6,787 nucleotides of DNA from JBFJWU01 sp041623475 [NCBI: bacterium] (GTDB lineage Bacteria > J088): contig JBFJWU010000191.1 of the NCBI GenBank assembly GCA_041623475.1, forward strand, positions 1 to 6,787, written 5' to 3'. A model generated the notes under the pieces. That model was given only the letters and a program-made list of their open reading frames with translations. It was not told the origin of the DNA and did not search any database. Positions 1-6,787 of the stretch are shown piece by piece. Positions within the stretch are counted from its first letter, which is position 1. Every line of letters starts with the position of its first letter. The position numbers and the translations under genes were made by a program.

Positions 1-211
1 CCTGCGGGTCGAGCGCTACCCGCGCGGTGAACGCGATGTGGGTCCCGCGCGGGGACACCTTCAGGTGGCCGACGCCCTCCTCGACCGCGGTGACCTGCGT
101 GAGGTCCCCCGAGCGCGGATCGAGCGACCACACCTGAGGCTTCTTCTCCTTATTACTACTCTCCTCGTCATTCTCCTCGTCGTCGTCGCCCTTCGAGACG
201 AAGAAGATGCG
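1..211 (-). CDS. S9-family peptidase-like beta-propeller, internal fragment
   Basis: Reading the minus strand from 211 down to 2 gives 70 uninterrupted codons. They begin RIFFVSKGDDDE, pass through an acidic/lysine low-complexity stretch, and continue with KPQVWSLDPRSGDLTQVTAV, then VSPRGTHIAFTARV. The pattern of xIFFVS, 'qvwxLdpxsGxlxqvT' and 'vSPxGxxIaFtaR' is the blade repeat of the WD40/TolB-like propeller found at the N-terminus of S9 dipeptidyl/acylaminoacyl peptidases. The alpha/beta-hydrolase domain would lie beyond base 1, so the catalytic triad cannot be seen. Third positions are G or C in 63 of 70 codons, and lines 1-120 are about 74% GC, higher than most of the window. The N-terminal part is missing: upstream of the RIFF codons this frame turns into arginine-rich antisense of the neighbouring RluA fragment. 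It could also be another propeller protein such as TolB. Confidence 0.6.
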
Positions 212-452
212 CGGGGTCTGGCTGCGCCTGCGGCTGCATACCGGACGTCGGCACCAGATCCGCTTGCACCTGGCATCGATTGGCTGCCCGGTGGCGGGCG
301 ACACACTGTACTATCGGGCGGCAATACAGGTGGGCGACTGGCGTGGCAGCGACTGCAAACCGCAGGTTCCGGACCAGATTGACCTGTGGTGCACGCAAAT
401 CATCCTGCCGGCGCTGCAGATCGACCTGCAGGCCGCTATCGATACGGACTAA
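207..452 (+). CDS. RluA-family pseudouridine synthase, C-terminal fragment (5' truncated)
   Basis: The plus-strand frame ending at TAA 450-452 carries LRLHTGRRHQIRLHLASIG followed by CPVAGDTLYY. This matches the conserved RluA/RsuA-type block 'L.TGR.HQIR.H....G.P..GD..Y', which sits in the C-terminal half of tRNA/rRNA uridine-to-pseudouridine isomerases. The part carrying the catalytic Asp (HRLDxxTSG motif) is absent. The only in-frame ATG is at 207, a TGA lies upstream at about 135, and the bases before about 216 belong to the antisense peptidase fragment. The native gene therefore begins elsewhere, and the 81-residue ORF is a remnant or an assembly truncation that should be inactive. Its stop codon lies 17 bases inside the convergent histidine-kinase gene. 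The family call is secure; the native extent is unknown. Confidence 0.75.
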   Translation: MRGVWLRLRLHTGRRHQIRLHLASIGCPVAGDTLYYRAAIQVGDWRGSDCKPQVPDQIDLWCTQIILPALQIDLQAAIDTD

Positions 453-2205
453 AGGTCGCCTCGCCCTCGGGATCCCAGTCATCCAGTTCGTCCTGGTACG
501 GCAGGCGAATTTCGAATACAGTTCCACCATCGGCGGGCGTATCAATGTGGATACGGCCCTTGTAGCGCTCGACAACCGCGTGGACAATGGGCAGCCCCAG
601 CCCCGTGCCCTCCTCGGGCCCCTTGGTAGTAAAGAACGGTTCAAAGATCCGGTCGCTGACCTCGGGCGGAATGCCGCAGCCGTTATCGCTGATCGTGATG
701 CACAGTTCGTCGCCGTCGTCGCCATCCAGGCGGCAGATCTGCAGGCTGACGCGCCCACCGTCCGAGCCAACCGCGTGCCGGGCGTTGGTCAGCAGGTTCA
801 GAATCATCTGCTGCAGATCTGTCTTGTTACCCACAAACATAGGTAACTCGGGCTCGACATCGACATCCAGGGTGACCTTGCCGCGGCGCAGTTCAAACGC
901 CGAAAAACTAAGCAGCTCGTCCACCATCATCCGGACATTGACCTGGGTGGCCCCGCCGGTGCCGGGTTTGCTGTACGACAACAGGCCTCGAACCAGTTGT
1001 TCGATTCGCTTGCCCTGGGTCAGGATGTGGCTGGTCTTCTCCTCGACCGACGGGCCATCCAGTTTGCCCTCGCGGACAACGTATTGCAGGTATTGGGCGG
1101 CACCAACAATGCCGGTCAACGGATTGTTCAGTTCGTGGGCAACGCCGCTGGCCATCTGCCCCAGGCTGGTGAACTTGTCGGCCTGGGATAACTGTTCATG
1201 GATCTTGCGCTCGCGTTCCTCGCGCTGCTTTGATTCGGTCACATCCTCGACCATCAGGATCCCGCGTTGGGTTTCATCCGGCGGCACGCCCAGCACCCGA
1301 ATCCAGCGTTTGTCGACCCCGTCCTCTGCAACGAACGGAAAATCGAACAGTTCGACGTTCTCCCCGGACAACAAACCCTCGACAAACGCCATCAGTCCGC
1401 TTTGGCGGAAACTGGGAATCCGGAAAATGTTGCGGTTATCCTCCAGTTGAATCCGTAACAGGTCCAGCGCCAGTTGGTTGGCCATGGTGATCCTGCCACC
1501 GGACCCAAAAACGACGATCCCGACCGGCAGATGGTGGAGAATCTCGATCTGGAAGGACTTGAACCGGTCCAGCTGTTCCTGTCGTTTTTCCAGCCGTTCT
1601 TCGCGCTGGGTCAGGACACCGCGGATCACCATAATGACACCGACACCCGTCAGCAACAGCGCCGTCCAGTAGGCCAGCATCGTATAAACGTATCCGGGCT
1701 CCTGATATCGGTTGCCTGCCAGGTAGGGTCCGATATTGTGATGAAGCAGAGCGCCGGACATTTCCTGGATCGCGACGAAAACCGTCAACAGCAGGTTGAC
1801 GATGCCGTAGACGAGCATCTCACCAATGCTGGCATACAACCCCAGCAGAACAAAGCCCATCAGAAAAAACGGGATCAGGGGACTTTCGACACCGCCGGTC
1901 AGGTGCAGGAGTCCTGCAAAAACAACGACGTCTGCCAGCGTCGACAGTCGACGCAGACGGGTTACCATTGTTGAATCCGGGGTGCCGCCCCGCAGATGCC
2001 AGCGTCGCAGCAAAAACTGGACCGTCGCATTGTATGCCGTGACAAACAATGCCAGTGCAATCAGGCCTTCAAGGGCAGGCCCGATCCAGCCGTGGGTGTC
2101 GAACACCAACAGCATCACGATGCCGGCCAGCAGGCTGAACCAACGCGTATGGACCGCGATCTGCCCGAATCGAAGCGCAGTATCCGAATTGCTTACTGTG
2201 GCCAT
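436..2205 (-). CDS. Membrane PAS-containing sensor histidine kinase
   Basis: This 589-residue protein should sit in the inner membrane, autophosphorylate a histidine, and pass the phosphate to a response regulator. There are about six hydrophobic segments (roughly 22-37, 43-66, 86-103, 108-127, 130-148 and 172-196) with no large periplasmic loop. A charged coiled-coil linker follows (about 200-216), then a PAS-like domain (about 217-325, from LPVGIVVFGSGGRITMAN to MVEDVTE). The HisKA H-box is ASGVAHELNNPLTG with phospho-acceptor His357. The catalytic domain is NtrB/PAS-kinase-like, with the N-box (MILNLLTNARHA, Asn470/474), G1 (SDNGCGIP, 506-513), F-box (FEPFFTTK, 521-528) and G2 (GTGLGLPIV, 533-541). 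All are intact. An acidic tail of about 19 residues follows the ATPase fold. ATG 2205 is preceded by GGACTAGGACC, which gives a Shine-Dalgarno. It is the third gene after the Ser/Thr kinase and FHA genes, and no response regulator is next to it. The input signal is unknown; hydrophobic or quinone ligands sensed in the membrane are possible. Confidence 0.93.
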   Translation of the reverse strand: MATVSNSDTALRFGQIAVHTRWFSLLAGIVMLLVFDTHGWIGPALEGLIALALFVTAYNATVQFLLRRWHLRGGTPDSTMVTRLRRLSTLADVVVFAGLLHLTGGVESPLIPFFLMGFVLLGLYASIGEMLVYGIVNLLLTVFVAIQEMSGALLHHNIGPYLAGNRYQEPGYVYTMLAYWTALLLTGVGVIMVIRGVLTQREERLEKRQEQLDRFKSFQIEILHHLPVGIVVFGSGGRITMANQLALDLLRIQLEDNRNIFRIPSFRQSGLMAFVEGLLSGENVELFDFPFVAEDGVDKRWIRVLGVPPDETQRGILMVEDVTESKQREERERKIHEQLSQADKFTSLGQMASGVAHELNNPLTGIVGAAQYLQYVVREGKLDGPSVEEKTSHILTQGKRIEQLVRGLLSYSKPGTGGATQVNVRMMVDELLSFSAFELRRGKVTLDVDVEPELPMFVGNKTDLQQMILNLLTNARHAVGSDGGRVSLQICRLDGDDGDELCITISDNGCGIPPEVSDRIFEPFFTTKGPEEGTGLGLPIVHAVVERYKGRIHIDTPADGGTVFEIRLPYQDELDDWDPEGEATFSPYR

Positions 2206-2269
2206 GGTCCTAGTCCGAAATGAGTCGCGACGACTTGAATTCGCTCAACCGCGCCCCCGACAGGTACGC

Positions 2270-2821
2270 CTATTCATCATCCTGCCAGATGAACTGCAGC
2301 TCGGTATCGCCAACTCGGATCAGGTCCCCGCTGCACAGTTTCTTGGACCGAACCGGTGTCCCGTTCAGTCGCGTACCGTTTGTGCTGGCCAGGTCACGCA
2401 CAAAGATGTTCTCGCGGCTGAGCGCCTCGATCACCGCGTGCTTGCGGCTGATCTTGGGATCGTCGACGACGATCTCGGAATCATAGCGGCCGATAATCGC
2501 ACGGCCTGATTGAAATTCGTAGACGTGTTCGTCTTCGCCCAGGATTTTGACAAACAGGCGGCGGCGGTACGGCAACGGCAGCGCCGTCGTCAGGTCATCA
2601 ACGATGGTCTCGTCGGATTCAACTGCAGTGCGATCATCGTCCCCCGATTTCCCGGTAACCCGGTCCAGTTGTTCTTCTTCCTGCCAGGTCGGGATTGAAA
2701 AAACCTGGTCCTTCCACAGACCGACAAAGCCGCAATCCGGACATTCCAATAAAACGTCGCGATCGGCATCCGCCGGGGGGACGCGAAATTCCTGCTTGCA
2801 TACTAGGCACTTGGGGATCAT
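2270..2821 (-). CDS. Zinc-ribbon plus FHA-domain phosphothreonine-binding protein
   Basis: This is a 183-residue soluble protein. Residues 1-35 hold two CxxC pairs (Cys5/Cys8 and Cys27/Cys30) that should form a zinc ribbon. Residues about 45-85 are an acidic, probably disordered linker. Residues about 88-180 are an FHA domain with every phosphopeptide-contact signature present: GR (111-112), SRKH (125-128) and STNGT (146-150). FHA domains bind phosphothreonine, so the natural partner is the Ser/Thr kinase encoded just upstream. The linker contains SDETIVDD, where Thr72 with Asp at +3 is a TxxD site. This allows intramolecular FHA binding after phosphorylation, as established for GarA/OdhI-type proteins; applying it here is inference. 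The ATG lies 7 bases after the kinase stop and no Shine-Dalgarno is visible, which suggests translational coupling. The client protein is unknown, and the histidine kinase downstream is an obvious candidate. Confidence 0.92.
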   Translation of the reverse strand: MIPKCLVCKQEFRVPPADADRDVLLECPDCGFVGLWKDQVFSIPTWQEEEQLDRVTGKSGDDDRTAVESDETIVDDLTTALPLPYRRRLFVKILGEDEHVYEFQSGRAIIGRYDSEIVVDDPKISRKHAVIEALSRENIFVRDLASTNGTRLNGTPVRSKKLCSGDLIRVGDTELQFIWQDDE

Positions 2822-2828
2822 GGCGTCG

Positions 2829-3938
2829 CTATTTTAGCACGAGCCACAGGACAAGCCCAACAACTGCCGCGACACCGATTCCGATCCAGACCGCATTATT
2901 GTTGCCAGTTTCCGTGGGCGGGGCGTGCCCGCGACTGGAACGGACCATCTGGTGCAGGACCATGTCAATTCGACTGCGATCGCCGTCGTCCCAGGTATCC
3001 CAGTCTTCGCCGGCGTTGACAACCACTGGGCCCTTGCTTTCAGCCTCCGCCAGCGCTGCGGCGGTTTCTTCGGCCTCCAGCGCCGGATCCTGGAACGGCT
3101 CGCCCAGCGCATCGGACAAGCCCTGGTAGAACGCGTGCGCGTCCTGAAACCGGTCCGCCGGGTCCTTGGCCAGGGCGGTCTCAAAAAACCGGTCGACCGA
3201 TTCCGGCAGGCGGGGATTGACGGAACTGGCGCGTTTCGGTGAATCATTCAGGATTCGCTGGACAATTGCGCTGACGGAATCTGCGCGAAACGGCTTGGTC
3301 CCGGTCAGCCAGACATAGGCAATGATGCCCAGCGAAAACACGTCCGACAGATACGTCACGTCCCGGCCCTTGACCTGCTCCGGAGACATATAGGACGGAC
3401 TGCCCAGCATTTGACCCTCCTGCGTCAGGTCACTGACATCCGGACGGGCAATTCCGAAATCCGTAATTTTGACCTCGCCGCCGCGGCCAACGATGATGTT
3501 GGCGGGCTTGATGTCGCGATGGACGATATTGTTCTGGTGCGCATAGTGCAGACCCGCGGCCACCTTGCGCAGGACCGCCAGCACCGCCTGGGGATCGTCT
3601 CTGCGCATATTGATGACCTTGTCCAGGCCCAGGCCGGGCACGTACTCCATCGCAAAATAGGGAACGTTGTCTTCGGTGCCGACGTCGTAGATCGTAACAA
3701 TACTGGGATGCCGCAGCCCCCCGGCCAGGCGCGCTTCGCGGACGAATCGCTCGCGGTATTCCTCGGACTTCTTGTCGGACAGTTTCAGGTCTGTGCGCGT
3801 CGTTTTCAGCGCAACAGGGCGTTCCAGCGTCGGGTCCCAGGCAAGGTAGACGACACCCATGGCGCCCTCGCCCAGAATACGTCGAATCTGGTACCGGCCA
3901 AAGAATTTGGGGGGTTCAGCGGACTCGGGCGATCCCAT
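2829..3938 (-). CDS. Tail-anchored Hanks-type Ser/Thr protein kinase
   Basis: This 369-residue eukaryotic-like kinase phosphorylates Ser/Thr of cytoplasmic targets from the membrane. The kinase domain (about 15-275) is complete: glycine loop GEGAMG (23-28), VALK lysine 45, HRDIKPAN (140-147, catalytic Asp142), DFG (160-162), SPEQ in the P+1 region, Asp199, and Arg263. An alanine/glutamate-rich and then acidic DW-rich juxtamembrane stretch (about 285-322) follows. One C-terminal TM helix (about 349-367) ends in Lys369, so there is no PASTA or other outside sensor domain. I chose ATG 3938 because AGGTAGGA lies 8 bases upstream and homology starts at FGRYQIRRILGEG. The longer in-frame ATG at 4157 would add 73 residues without kinase character and would overlap the divergent reductase gene. 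It is the first gene of the operon with the FHA protein and histidine kinase. Activation-loop Thr/Ser residues (TQEGQ, GSPS) could be autophosphorylated. Confidence 0.94.
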   Translation of the reverse strand: MGSPESAEPPKFFGRYQIRRILGEGAMGVVYLAWDPTLERPVALKTTRTDLKLSDKKSEEYRERFVREARLAGGLRHPSIVTIYDVGTEDNVPYFAMEYVPGLGLDKVINMRRDDPQAVLAVLRKVAAGLHYAHQNNIVHRDIKPANIIVGRGGEVKITDFGIARPDVSDLTQEGQMLGSPSYMSPEQVKGRDVTYLSDVFSLGIIAYVWLTGTKPFRADSVSAIVQRILNDSPKRASSVNPRLPESVDRFFETALAKDPADRFQDAHAFYQGLSDALGEPFQDPALEAEETAAALAEAESKGPVVVNAGEDWDTWDDGDRSRIDMVLHQMVRSSRGHAPPTETGNNNAVWIGIGVAAVVGLVLWLVLK

Positions 3939-4101
3939 AGCGTTTATCCTACCTGCTTCAAAACAACAGTGTAACCGGCCCGATTCGTGACCGGGACCGG
4001 CACGGTAACAGGCGTCACCTGTATGCTGAAACAGCAGCTGGTAACGCACCAGCTTGATCAACAATGGGCGACCGAGGTGGGCCGGATGAAAGGACATCAT
4101 T
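3939..4101. promoter_or_regulatory. Divergent control region between the kinase operon and the glutathione operon
   Basis: These 163 bases separate the kinase ATG (minus strand) from the reductase GTG (plus strand), so both promoters should lie here unless they extend into coding sequence. The kinase Shine-Dalgarno (AGGTAGGA on the minus strand) lies at one end and the reductase Shine-Dalgarno (AAAGGA, about 4089-4094) at the other. I found no convincing -35/-10 pair on either strand; TATGCT at 4023-4028 is a weak plus-strand -10 candidate. GGTAAC or GTAAC recurs at 3971, 4005 and 4041, spaced 34-36 bases, which may be chance. One perfect inverted repeat is listed separately. Confidence 0.55.
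4036..4054. repeat. Perfect 7-base inverted repeat in the divergent control region
   Basis: AGCTGGT at 4036-4042 and ACCAGCT at 4048-4054 are exact reverse complements around a 5-base spacer, AACGC. The spacing and its position between two divergent operons fit a dimeric repressor or activator operator. It could also fold as a short hairpin in the reductase leader. The repeat is directly visible; its function is inferred. Confidence 0.5.
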
Positions 4102-5064
4102 GTGGGACTTTTGGTTGACGGTAAATGGCAGGACGAGTGGTACAAACCGGACAGCAAGGGCCGTTTTGTCCGCCCCGAGACCAGCTTTCGCGACTGGATC
4201 CGGGCTGACGGATCCGGCGTTGCCCCGCCCCAGGCGGGGCGTTACCACCTGTATGTCAGTTACGCGTGCCCGTGGGCGACACGGGTCCTGATCATGCGCA
4301 ACCTTAAAGGGTTACAGGACGCGATTGGTGTTTCCGTCGTCCACCCGGACATGGGTGACCAGGGCTGGACGTTTGCAGACTATCCGGGTGCCACCGGCGA
4401 TACGCTGGGCGACCGCAGCTACCTGCACCAGGTCTATACGGATGCGATCGCTGATATTACCAGCAGGGTAACCGTCCCCGTCCTGTGGGATACGAATGGG
4501 TCGAGGATCATCAACAACGAGTCACGGGAAATCGTGCGGATGTTTGACCACGAGTTTGCCGGCATCGCTACAAACGACGCTGACCTGGCACCGGCAGAAC
4601 TGCTGGACCAGGTCGAAGAGACCATCGACCGGATCTACGAACCGATTAACAATGGTGTCTATCGCTGCGGCTTTGCCGGCTCGCAGGAGGCTTATGACGA
4701 AGCTGTTGACGAACTGTTTGCAGAGCTGGACCACTGGGAACAGGTCCTCGCCAACCAGCGTTACGTGTGCGGTAATCGCTTGACCGAGGCCGACGTTTGC
4801 ATGTTTACGACGCTCTACCGGTTTGATGCGGTCTACAACATCCATTTCAAATGCAGCCGCCGCCGGATCATCGACTATCCCAACCTGTGGGCCTACGTCC
4901 GCGACCTGTACCAGATGCCGGCATTTGCCGACGCGTGCAATATGGACCACATCAGGCGACACTACTTCTGGAGTCACACCTCGATCAACCCCAAAAGGAT
5001 CATAGCCTCGATGCCGGACCTGGAATTTGACGCCCCCCACGACCGCGACCGGTTTACACCGTGA
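4102..5064 (+). CDS. yqjG: Glutathionyl-hydroquinone reductase (Xi-class GST)
   Basis: This 320-residue protein is full length for the YqjG/ECM4/PcpF family, which reduces glutathionyl-hydroquinones to hydroquinones with glutathione in the cytoplasm. The hallmark block is GRYHLYVSYACPWATR, with catalytic Cys56 in the CPWA motif; most relatives have CPWAHR or CPWASR, and here the next residue is Thr. The family's LKGL and GWTF follow. TVPVLWD supplies the cis-Pro (Pro126) and NNESREI (Glu140-Ser141) binds the glutathione gamma-glutamyl group. The C-terminal helical domain includes the family-typical RYVCGNRLTEADV and HYFWSHTSINPKRI. The start is GTG 4102, with AAAGGA about 8 bases upstream; the ATG at 4086 is in another frame. 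Its stop overlaps the start of a second GST, indicating a two-gene operon. Probable role: repair of quinone-glutathione adducts from aromatic degradation or quinone stress. Confidence 0.92.
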   Translation: MGLLVDGKWQDEWYKPDSKGRFVRPETSFRDWIRADGSGVAPPQAGRYHLYVSYACPWATRVLIMRNLKGLQDAIGVSVVHPDMGDQGWTFADYPGATGDTLGDRSYLHQVYTDAIADITSRVTVPVLWDTNGSRIINNESREIVRMFDHEFAGIATNDADLAPAELLDQVEETIDRIYEPINNGVYRCGFAGSQEAYDEAVDELFAELDHWEQVLANQRYVCGNRLTEADVCMFTTLYRFDAVYNIHFKCSRRRIIDYPNLWAYVRDLYQMPAFADACNMDHIRRHYFWSHTSINPKRIIASMPDLEFDAPHDRDRFTP

Positions 5065-5735
5065 TCGTCGTCCACCACCTCAACAATTCGCGGTCCCAGC
5101 GCATCCTCTGGATGCTGGAAGAAATGGGCACCGACTACGAGATCAAGCGTTACGAACGCAACGCGAAAACACAACTGGCACCGCCAGAACTGGCGGCCGT
5201 CCACCCCCTGGGCAAGTCACCCGTGATATCTGACGGCGACAGGATCATTGCCGAATCCGGCGCGATCATTGAGTACCTGGCCAGCCTGGACGACGGCAAG
5301 CCGTTCCGGTTTGATCCCGGGTCAGACGAGGCACTGCAGGCCAGTTACTGGGTCCATTTTGCCGAGGGATCGCTGATGCCGCCGTTACTGTTGCGGCTGG
5401 TTTTTGAGATTGTCAAGTCCAGCCCCATGCCGTTCTTTGTCAAACCGATTGCGCGGGCCATTGCCGGACAGGTCACAAAGAATTTTATCGGCCCGAACAT
5501 TCAGCGAACAATGGCATTCATCAACGACCAGTTGGACGGCAAACAATGGCTGGTCGGCGACACGTTGAGCCTTGCCGACTTCCAGATGAGCTTTCCCCTG
5601 GAGGCCAGCGTGGCCCGTGGCGTGATCAACGATGAGTACCCGAACATTGGCCGCTACGTCCGGGCCTACCAGTCCCGCCCGGCGTACCAGCGCGCGCTGG
5701 ACCGGGGTGGAGATTACGACTACCTCTGTTCGTAG
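5061..5735 (+). CDS. Glutathione S-transferase, Gtt1-like
   Basis: This 224-residue two-domain GST has the usual length for the family. The thioredoxin-fold N-domain (1-80) carries VHHLNNSRSQRILWMLEE, where Ser10 or Ser12 probably activates glutathione. HPLGKSPVI supplies the cis-Pro (Pro54) and ESGAIIEYL (Glu65-Ser66) contacts the gamma-glutamyl group. The helical C-domain (about 90-218) has the N-capping box SLADFQ (170-175). The 'hhLnnSRsqRilWmLEE...YEikrYeR' opening is the pattern of bacterial and fungal Gtt1-like GSTs. The GTG start overlaps the preceding stop as GTGA and has no clear Shine-Dalgarno, so translation is probably coupled to the reductase. The first beta strand begins right at the GTG, which supports this start. 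Likely role: conjugating glutathione to electrophiles, whose quinone adducts the upstream reductase could then process. The substrate is not deducible. Confidence 0.9.
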   Translation: MIVVHHLNNSRSQRILWMLEEMGTDYEIKRYERNAKTQLAPPELAAVHPLGKSPVISDGDRIIAESGAIIEYLASLDDGKPFRFDPGSDEALQASYWVHFAEGSLMPPLLLRLVFEIVKSSPMPFFVKPIARAIAGQVTKNFIGPNIQRTMAFINDQLDGKQWLVGDTLSLADFQMSFPLEASVARGVINDEYPNIGRYVRAYQSRPAYQRALDRGGDYDYLCS

Positions 5736-5761
5736 CTCGGGGACTAGACCACCGGGCGAAC
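5728..5761. terminator. Imperfect stem-loop across two convergent stop codons
   Basis: GTTCG (5728-5732) pairs with CGAAC (5757-5761). After a small bulge, CTCGG (5736-5740) pairs with CCGGG (5752-5756, one T-G wobble). That leaves a loop around the two convergent stop codons, which are only 8 bases apart. With no other intergenic space, this could act as a bidirectional terminator for the GST and SRAP genes. There is no T-tract on either side, so the call is weak. Confidence 0.3.
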
Positions 5762-6514
5762 GTGTGTCCGGGCAGCCGGGAACTGGCTCAATAACGAAAC
5801 GGCTTCGGTTGGCGGCACGCCCTCGGTATCCAGCCAGGGCCGGATGTCGTCTGGCTCCAGCCACGCCGGCTGGCGTCGTTTGGCCGGATCCGCCGGTTTG
5901 TTGTGGATTGCCTGCATGGTTGAATTGGCCGCCGTCGTAATGATGGCGCAGGACACCCAGTCAAACGGTTCGCGCCCGTCGATACGACATTCAAATGAAT
6001 GCCAGACGCACGGCAATACAAAAATCGGATTATCACCCACAGCGATTTCGTAGACCTGTGTCCTTGGTGCCTTTTTGGGCCGGGATTCGTTGTCCGCCAG
6101 GGGCTGGCCCCCGGTATCCTGCCATTGCCATTCGCCAAAACTTTCCAGCGCAACAATCCCGCGGTTGGCAGGCATCAGTTTTTTCCAGGTTTTTTTGTCC
6201 AGCAACGTATCATCACGGGCATTCTGGCGGCTGGCGTTCTTGCTGTAGTCGATCTTTGGCTGCCATTCGGCCTCGGCCCCCGGCTCTGGATATTTGACCT
6301 GCCAGGGCTCAACGATATTGAACCAGGCATTCCGGGCCACAAATTCGCCGGGACCGGCCTCGTGCAGCAGGTACAACCGCTGGGACGTCTGGTTTGGTCG
6401 GACGCTGCCGACCGTTTCATACGGCTCCGCCGCCACCAGCGCGTCACCCATCAAGTCGCCGTAGAACGACATGTAATGGCGCGGATGCGGACCAACATTA
6501 ACCAGGTTACACAC
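5744..6514 (-). CDS. SRAP-domain (YedK/HMCES-like) DNA-protein crosslink protein, divergent
   Basis: With the GTG start at 6514 the protein is 256 residues and begins Met-Cys-Asn-Leu. SRAP proteins crosslink their N-terminal Cys2 to abasic sites in single-stranded DNA, shielding the lesion. The expected active-site set is visible: Cys2, Asn98 in the QNARDDTL block (NARAE-type), Glu128 in ESFGEWQ, and His204 in IITTAANSTMQAIHNK. GTG 6514 is preceded by AGAGGA at a proper distance. The upstream ATG at 6553 would add 13 residues and bury Cys2. Oddities: the usual RMP following the IHxR motif is replaced by KPADPAKRRQPAWLEP; the N-terminus is MCNLVN rather than MCGRF; and residues 70-95 form an extra proline/charge-rich insert. 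It is convergent with the GST gene (8 bases apart) and its start is 53 bases from the divergent sulfatase start. No LexA-type box was seen upstream. Confidence 0.85.
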   Translation of the reverse strand: MCNLVNVGPHPRHYMSFYGDLMGDALVAAEPYETVGSVRPNQTSQRLYLLHEAGPGEFVARNAWFNIVEPWQVKYPEPGAEAEWQPKIDYSKNASRQNARDDTLLDKKTWKKLMPANRGIVALESFGEWQWQDTGGQPLADNESRPKKAPRTQVYEIAVGDNPIFVLPCVWHSFECRIDGREPFDWVSCAIITTAANSTMQAIHNKPADPAKRRQPAWLEPDDIRPWLDTEGVPPTEAVSLLSQFPAARTHVRPVV

Positions 6515-6567
6515 TGTGAATCCTCTTCCCCGCTTCCACCGGCAGAACCTCAACTATAATACGACGC
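6515..6567. promoter_or_regulatory. Compact divergent promoter between SRAP and sulfatase genes
   Basis: A perfect TATAAT lies at 6555-6560 on the plus strand, 7 bases before the sulfatase GTG at 6568. Transcription would therefore begin at or beside the start codon, and no Shine-Dalgarno precedes the GTG. The -35 is poor (CTTCCA at about 6533-6538). The same AT-rich block reads TATTAT/TATAGT on the minus strand and could serve as the SRAP -10, followed by the SRAP Shine-Dalgarno AGAGGA. The two promoters would then overlap and compete. Confidence 0.5.
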
Positions 6568-6787
6568 GTGTTGGGCAGTTTGCGATCGATTGATCCTGTA
6601 CGCCGGCGACTGATTCTCGTTGTCGCCGCCGTGTTGTTGATCATCGGCGCGTGGCTGCTGCTGGAACGCTGGCAGAAGCCTCCTGACATCGTGCTGTTGG
6701 TCGTTGACTCGCTGCGGGCCGACCACGTATCCGCCTGGGGACACGAACAAAAGACCACACCACACATTGATGCCCTGGCCCGGGACG
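6568..6787 (+). CDS. Membrane-anchored sulfatase/alkaline-phosphatase-superfamily enzyme, N-terminal part
   Basis: The first 73 codons are in the window and the gene runs off the edge. A basic N-terminus (about residues 5-14, ending VRRR) is followed by one hydrophobic helix (about 15-32), which gives a signal anchor. DIVLLVVDSLRADHVSAWG and TTPHIDALARD then match the sulfatase-family opening 'nvllivxDslRaDhlxxyGxxxxTPxiDxLAxxG', with Asp47 as the probable first metal ligand. The catalytic Cys/Ser (CxPSR or equivalent) is outside the window, so arylsulfatase cannot be separated from phosphoglycerol or phosphoethanolamine transferase types. The start is GTG 6568; TTG 6571 or 6580 are alternatives. 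No Shine-Dalgarno is visible, and the TATAAT 7 bases upstream suggests leaderless translation. Confidence 0.82.
   Translation, partial: MLGSLRSIDPVRRRLILVVAAVLLIIGAWLLLERWQKPPDIVLLVVDSLRADHVSAWGHEQKTTPHIDALARD

What the first reader, a model, noticed from the sequence alone, without database searches (positions are those of the whole stretch)
436..3938. Ser/Thr kinase - FHA/zinc ribbon - histidine kinase operon: a candidate cross-talk cassette
A membrane Hanks kinase, a phosphothreonine reader and a membrane histidine kinase are co-directional, with gaps of 7 and 64 bases. There is no response regulator and no PP2C phosphatase in the window. The order suggests that Ser/Thr phosphorylation gates a two-component sensor through the FHA adaptor. 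Kinase-FHA pairs are well known; I cannot confirm that this three-part combination is described.
Basis: partly seen in the sequence, partly recalled or inferred. Interest (0 to 1): 0.65.

Follow-up and report, generated by a model that had tools for sequence, protein, structure and literature searches.

The report
Ser/Thr kinase, FHA adaptor, histidine kinase operon
Three neighbouring bacterial genes encode a membrane protein kinase, a phosphate-reading adaptor and a membrane sensor kinase that may form one signalling chain, an unusual version of a known type of kinase cross-talk.

Summary
The three genes are real, intact and at the stated coordinates: a PknB-like Ser/Thr kinase with one C-terminal membrane helix, a zinc-ribbon FHA protein with complete phosphothreonine-pocket motifs, and a membrane PAS histidine kinase with all catalytic boxes. 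They are co-directional (gaps 7 and 64 bases) between a divergent gene and a convergent gene fragment, so any partner response regulator or PP2C phosphatase is encoded elsewhere. Best explanation: the Ser/Thr kinase phosphorylates itself and the FHA protein, which couples this state to the orphan histidine kinase. The kinase-FHA half rests on family knowledge; the FHA-to-histidine-kinase step is inference. Co-conservation could not be tested in the right lineage: no genome is held, and the one genome-contig scan found only an unrelated FHA locus. In an off-lineage background, 0 of 40 Chloroflexota FHA loci had a similar histidine kinase nearby and 3 of 40 a Ser/Thr kinase. A precedent exists: Myxococcus EspA working with Ser/Thr kinases. 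The sensor is distantly PilS/RegB-like but lacks RegB's quinone motif. Verdict: a variant of a known kind, moderate interest.

The parts
2829..3938 (-). PknB-like Hanks Ser/Thr kinase, 369 aa: kinase domain (16-265), acidic tail with Thr292 and Thr315 (DWDTWDD), one C-terminal TM helix, nothing after it
   Evidence: Pfam Pkinase 4.9e-50; best solved relative PknB 5.8e-51; motifs GEGAMGVV, VALK, HRDIKPAN, DFG, SPE and TM 346-369; Thr list
2270..2821 (-). Zinc-ribbon FHA adaptor, 183 aa: CxxC-CxxC (5-30), acidic linker with Thr65 and Thr72 (SDETIVDD), FHA domain (about 99-178) with GR (111-112), SRKH (125-128), NG (148-149)
   Evidence: Pfam FHA 2.9e-16; motif positions; nearest solved relatives Mtb TB39.8 2.7e-9 and chains named GarA 1.8e-7; which residues line the cleft is recalled
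436..2205 (-). Membrane histidine kinase, 589 aa: hydrophobic N-terminus (probably six helices), PAS (about 222-326), HisKA with H357 (HELNNP), HATPase; no receiver domain
2822..2828 (-). 7-base gap kinase/FHA
2206..2269 (-). 64-base gap FHA/histidine kinase, no terminator-like site in it
3939..4101 (-). Divergent intergenic region, the likely place of the operon promoter (inference); SD-like AGGTAGGAT before the kinase ATG (by eye)
   Evidence: sequence; no sigma-70-type minus-strand site found

Best explanation
A three-gene signalling operon. The membrane-tethered PknB-like kinase autophosphorylates and phosphorylates acid-flanked threonines in its own tail (candidate Thr315) and in the linker of the zinc-ribbon FHA protein (candidates Thr65, Thr72). 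The FHA domain binds pThr on the kinase tail while its own linker is unphosphorylated, and folds back on its own linker once it is phosphorylated (a GarA/OdhI-type switch). The docked or released adaptor contacts the PilS-like membrane histidine kinase and shifts its autokinase/phosphatase balance towards a response regulator encoded elsewhere, perhaps of the NtrC class. Shown: gene identity, order, intact active-site and pThr-pocket motifs. Inferred: co-transcription, phosphorylation sites, switch, contact with the histidine kinase, class of the response regulator.
For: Co-directional order with 7- and 64-base gaps, bounded by divergent and convergent neighbours. Catalytic motifs of both kinases and the FHA cleft motifs intact. 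Solved FHA relatives include GarA (1.8e-7) and OdhI (2.3e-5), which are described as recognising their own tail peptide, as DgcB does (PMC6733907, passages). Thr72 and Thr315 each have three acids at -4 to -1 and Asp at +3; 7 of the 27 threonines outside folded domains have two or more such acids, 4 of them in the FHA linker and 2 in the kinase tail; that some FHA domains favour pTxxD is recalled. The NCBIfam model of EspA (a histidine kinase whose FHA part is recalled and implied by the match) matches this FHA protein at model 39-114 (9.4e-13) and this histidine kinase at 365-611 (3.8e-29), so one known protein seems to hold both modules; but the domains are generic and other models score better (EspA is 2nd of 5 for the FHA protein, 16th for the histidine kinase). 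Best model for the histidine-kinase core is AtoS. STK control of histidine kinases is in print, e.g. PknL on NarS (PMC12189002, passage). 0 of 40 Chloroflexota FHA loci had a histidine kinase at E <= 1e-3 in the stretch read, so the neighbourhood is not a trivial background there.
Against: No conserved neighbourhood could be shown: the one genome-contig scan gave 1 locus, without a Ser/Thr or histidine kinase; three viral-contig scans gave none. The 64-base gap leaves room for a separate promoter. The histidine kinase has only one acid-flanked Thr outside its folded domains (Thr584), so no clear docking site. The Thr72 motif lacks the hydrophobic -3 and +3 positions described for GarA/OdhI/DgcB tails. 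Both structure models are too poor to test the switch (mean pLDDT 47.9 and 43.9).
Confidence: 0.4

Rival explanations
1. Only the kinase and FHA protein work together (kinase plus its FHA substrate/adaptor, acting on another target); the histidine kinase is a separately working sensor that merely shares the operon or has its own promoter in the 64-base gap.
For: Kinase-FHA gap is 7 bases, FHA-histidine kinase gap 64. Kinase-FHA neighbourhoods without a histidine kinase occur elsewhere: 3 of 40 Chloroflexota FHA loci have a Ser/Thr kinase in the stretch read and none a histidine kinase.
Against: No terminator-like site in the 64-base gap; no response regulator among the window ORFs scanned, so the histidine kinase is not part of a linked two-component pair. 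Orphan histidine kinases are, however, common (recalled).
Confidence: 0.35
2. The Ser/Thr kinase phosphorylates the histidine kinase directly, and the FHA protein acts on the Ser/Thr kinase (activator, scaffold or feedback), not as the link.
For: Direct STK phosphorylation of histidine kinases and response regulators is described, e.g. PknL on NarS Thr380 (PMC12189002, passage). The histidine kinase has an acid-flanked Thr584 in its C-terminal tail.
Against: Does not explain why an FHA reader lies between the two genes; only one candidate site.
Confidence: 0.17
3. The histidine kinase lies beside a kinase-FHA pair by accident of gene order, without common regulation.
For: No relatives with the same order were found, but the right lineage could not be searched.
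Against: Same strand, tight spacing, flanking genes on the opposite strand, matching biochemical themes.
Confidence: 0.08

Closest known systems
Myxococcus xanthus EspA with Ser/Thr kinases PktA5 and PktB8, and EspB
   Same: Ser/Thr kinases and a histidine kinase in one pathway (PMC4320627, passage, which prints the second kinase as PktA8; PktB8 is recalled). The EspA model is matched by this FHA protein and by this histidine kinase at different parts.
   Different: EspA is a hybrid kinase with its own receiver and carries the FHA part in the same chain (recalled, and implied); here FHA is a separate zinc-ribbon protein, and the histidine kinase has a membrane sensor and PAS and no receiver. 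The gene arrangement of the Myxococcus locus is recalled, not read.
GarA/OdhI (and DgcB) FHA switch proteins; GarA/OdhI with PknB/PknG-type kinases
   Same: FHA domain with acid-flanked Thr N-terminal to it, beside a PknB-like kinase
   Different: GarA/OdhI act on metabolic enzymes (abstract starts seen) and have no zinc ribbon (recalled); tail motif only partly alike
Ser/Thr kinase to two-component cross-talk (PknL-NarS, S. aureus STK-VraTSR/WalRK/GraSR)
   Same: A Hanks kinase acting on a two-component system (PMC12189002, passages)
   Different: Described as direct phosphorylation in the passages seen; no separate FHA adaptor is mentioned there
PilS / RegB-type six-helix sensor histidine kinases
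   Same: N-terminus homologous to G030 protein P0004 (26% over 176 aa), which has TGGVTNPF and a sub-threshold 6TM_PilS match (E 0.0056)
   Different: No 6TM_PilS match of its own at E <= 10; GGVESPL instead of RegB's GGXXNPF

Membership tests
Hanks-type (PknB-like) Ser/Thr kinase | Kinase domain with P-loop, VAxK, HRDxKxxN, DFG, APE/SPE | tested here: met
   Pfam 4.9e-50; motifs
PASTA kinase (PknB/Stk1 equivalog) | Extracellular PASTA repeats | tested here: not met
   Protein ends at the TM helix; NCBIfam PknB_PASTA_kin 301 bits, below its cut-off of 450
pThr-binding FHA protein | GR, SxxH and NG motifs of the cleft (recalled as defining) | tested here: met
   GR 111-112, SRKH 125-128, NG 148-149; binding itself untested
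GarA/OdhI-type self-binding switch | Tail Thr with Glu at -2, hydrophobic at -3, +2, +3 (PMC6733907, passage) | tested here: inconclusive
   Thr72: Asp at -2 and Val at +2, but Ser at -3 and Asp at +3
Orthodox HisKA histidine kinase | H-box His, N-, G1-, F-, G2-boxes, no receiver | tested here: met
   H357 and boxes; no receiver domain
RegB redox sensor | GGXXNPF quinone motif and redox-box Cys | tested here: not met
   GGVESPL; Cys only at 491, 502, 510, in the ATPase domain; features from PMC8191878 (passages)
EspA (NCBIfam equivalog) | Score over the model's cut-off; FHA, kinase and receiver in one chain | tested here: not met
   Separate genes; EspA model 47 and 101 bits against a cut-off of 1400
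Conserved three-gene cassette | Same order in relatives of the organism | not testable with these tools
   No genome held; genome-contig scan spent on one unrelated locus; only Chloroflexota reachable as a centre, 0 of 40 FHA loci with a histidine kinase

The most novel reading that the evidence does not exclude
A compact cassette in which a zinc-ribbon FHA protein acts as a phospho-switchable adaptor that docks a tail-anchored Ser/Thr kinase onto a PilS-like orphan histidine kinase, converting Ser/Thr phosphorylation into histidine-aspartate signalling: the split, adaptor-based counterpart of the fused EspA system.
Probability: 0.25. Interest if true: 0.6.

Novelty: new variant of a known kind. 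Interest (0 to 1): 0.36.

Why it matters
Ser/Thr kinases and two-component systems are mostly studied as separate networks, with cross-talk found case by case. An operon that encodes a Ser/Thr kinase, a phosphothreonine reader and a histidine kinase would be a small, self-contained model in which to test how one kind of phosphorylation gates the other.

Tried and rejected
Lineage and co-conservation: the window's genome is not held. The single genome-contig scan with the FHA protein returned one Anaerolineales locus, L001, whose FHA proteins are of another build (by eye) and which holds no Ser/Thr or histidine kinase at E <= 1e-3. Viral-contig scans with each of the three proteins gave no relative. 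Plasmid tblastn: 4 records for the FHA protein, none over 80% of it; 4810 records for the histidine kinase, none over 80% of it; 1 record for the SRAP protein; none for the histidine-kinase N-terminus alone. The organism stays unassigned.

Chloroflexota as background: reached only because one search gave a centre there. 82 of 201 genomes had an FHA hit at E <= 1e-8. I fetched 40 places, one each in 40 of the 82, choosing open frames of 202 to 374 residues, with up to 6 kb on each side; 14 of 40 stretches are under 12 kb because of contig ends. Single-sequence phmmer with strict cut-offs and again at E <= 1e-3 gave the same: FHA 40 of 40, Ser/Thr kinase 3 of 40, histidine kinase 0 of 40, this zinc ribbon 0 of 40. 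Divergent members may be missed; it is a background for one phylum, not a test of the window's lineage. The histidine-kinase N-terminus matched 1 of 400 Chloroflexota genomes, beside a receiver and hydrogenase-like genes (by eye); the 19 kb read there hold no Ser/Thr kinase or FHA match at E <= 1e-3. That genome has 38 matches to the whole histidine kinase, the best ones to the generic core.

RegB redox sensing: rejected as membership, quinone motif not met. Structure predictions without alignment gave low confidence, so no fold search was run. Promoter scan: uninformative. Papers: nine searches ran. By the listed titles and starts of abstracts, and passages of six papers, I saw no separate kinase / zinc-ribbon FHA / histidine kinase operon; the library holds open-licence papers only, so this is weak evidence of absence. 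PMC2875238 had no EspA passage in its main text.
Full report
OBSERVATION. The window carries three consecutive minus-strand genes: a Ser/Thr kinase (2829-3938), a zinc-ribbon FHA protein (2270-2821) and a histidine kinase (436-2205), with gaps of 7 and 64 bases. Pfam confirms the domains. On one side lies a divergent GST-type gene (start 4102), on the other a convergent RluA-type gene fragment whose frame ends at 452 and overlaps the 3' end of the histidine-kinase gene. The same-strand run thus has three genes and is bounded on both sides; of the 8 ORFs scanned (out of 49 of 60 aa or more) none is a response regulator or PP2C phosphatase.

THE KINASE. Its best solved relatives are PknB structures (5.8e-51). 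The catalytic motifs are present; a single hydrophobic helix ends the protein at residue 369. There is no extracellular sensor domain, so unlike PASTA kinases it must take its input from the cytoplasm or the membrane (inference). The tail before the helix is acidic and holds Thr315 in DWDTWDD.

THE FHA PROTEIN. Two CxxC pairs (C5/C8, C27/C30), an acidic linker with Thr65 and Thr72, and an FHA domain whose phosphothreonine-cleft motifs are complete. The zinc ribbon rests on the cysteine pattern and sub-threshold Pfam matches. The closest solved chains are mycobacterial TB39.8 (2.7e-9), then GarA chains (1.8e-7 for the first so named). GarA, OdhI and Bdellovibrio DgcB recognise their own N-terminal tail around a threonine (PMC6733907, passages, one from the abstract). 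Thr72 meets the pattern given there only in part: acid at -2 and hydrophobic at +2, not at -3 and +3.

THE HISTIDINE KINASE. HisKA with H357 in HELNNP, the ATPase boxes, a weak PAS domain, and a strongly hydrophobic N-terminus, probably six helices (low-confidence model). The core scores best with the AtoS model; all 25 models shown, of 80, are below their cut-offs. Pairing with an NtrC-type regulator is therefore a guess from family knowledge. The N-terminus matches one protein in 400 Chloroflexota genomes; that protein, P0004, shares 26% identity over 176 residues, has a sub-threshold match to Pfam 6TM_PilS (0.0056) and the RegB-like motif TGGVTNPF. The window protein has TGGVESPL and no cysteine outside the ATPase domain, so RegB's quinone motif GGXXNPF and redox cysteine (PMC8191878, passages) are not met.

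HOW IT PROBABLY WORKS. The first two genes make a kinase and its reader: this follows from family knowledge and intact motifs. The step from FHA protein to histidine kinase is inferred from the gene order alone. Myxococcus offers the nearest precedent: the NCBIfam EspA model is matched by this FHA protein and by this histidine kinase at two different parts, although both domains are generic and other models score better (EspA 2nd of 5, and 16th), and PktA5 is reported to act with a second kinase and EspB and perhaps with EspA (PMC4320627, passage). Direct phosphorylation of histidine kinases by Ser/Thr kinases is also in print (PMC12189002, passages).

CONSERVATION. The decisive test could not be run. 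No genome is held, the one scan of genome contigs gave an unrelated FHA locus, viral contigs gave nothing. As a background, 40 Chloroflexota FHA loci were read: 3 of 40 with a Ser/Thr kinase, 0 of 40 with a histidine kinase, 0 of 40 with this zinc ribbon, at strict cut-offs and at E <= 1e-3 alike (14 of 40 cut by contig ends). The arrangement was not seen in that sample, which says neither that it is new nor that it is conserved elsewhere.

CAVEAT ON THE CONTIG. At about 206-218 a minus-strand frame resembling an S9-type peptidase (by eye and recall; no Pfam match) meets the RluA-type fragment (TIGR00005 2.4e-10, below its cut-off) head to head, both cut off there; third-position G+C is 0.90 on the left (68 codons only) and 0.69-0.79 in the other genes. 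This looks like an assembly chimera or a breakpoint, but lies outside the three genes.

VERDICT. Observation confirmed; interpretation partly supported. A new variant of a known kind, of moderate interest, mainly as a compact test system for Ser/Thr to His-Asp cross-talk.

Noticed in passing
window 1-452: A minus-strand S9-peptidase-like frame (2-205; by eye, no Pfam match) and a plus-strand RluA C-terminal fragment (about 219-452) are both cut off at about 206-218 and differ in GC3 (0.90 vs 0.79; short stretches): probable assembly chimera or rearrangement breakpoint.
   Followed up: partly
window 4102-5735: Two different GST-fold genes in tandem, overlapping by 4 bases.
   Followed up: no
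window 5744-6553: SRAP-domain protein in which only profile positions 65-207 of 214 match, with a long N-terminal part outside the match.
   Followed up: no
L058:8752-12650: In unnamed Chloroflexota genome G030 a receiver protein and a histidine kinase with a RegB-like N-terminus (TGGVTNPF) sit directly before hydrogenase-like genes (by eye).
   Followed up: partly
window 6568-6786: Start of a sulfatase-like protein with an N-terminal hydrophobic stretch, running off the window (Pfam Sulfatase 1.1e-4, below its cut-off).
   Followed up: no
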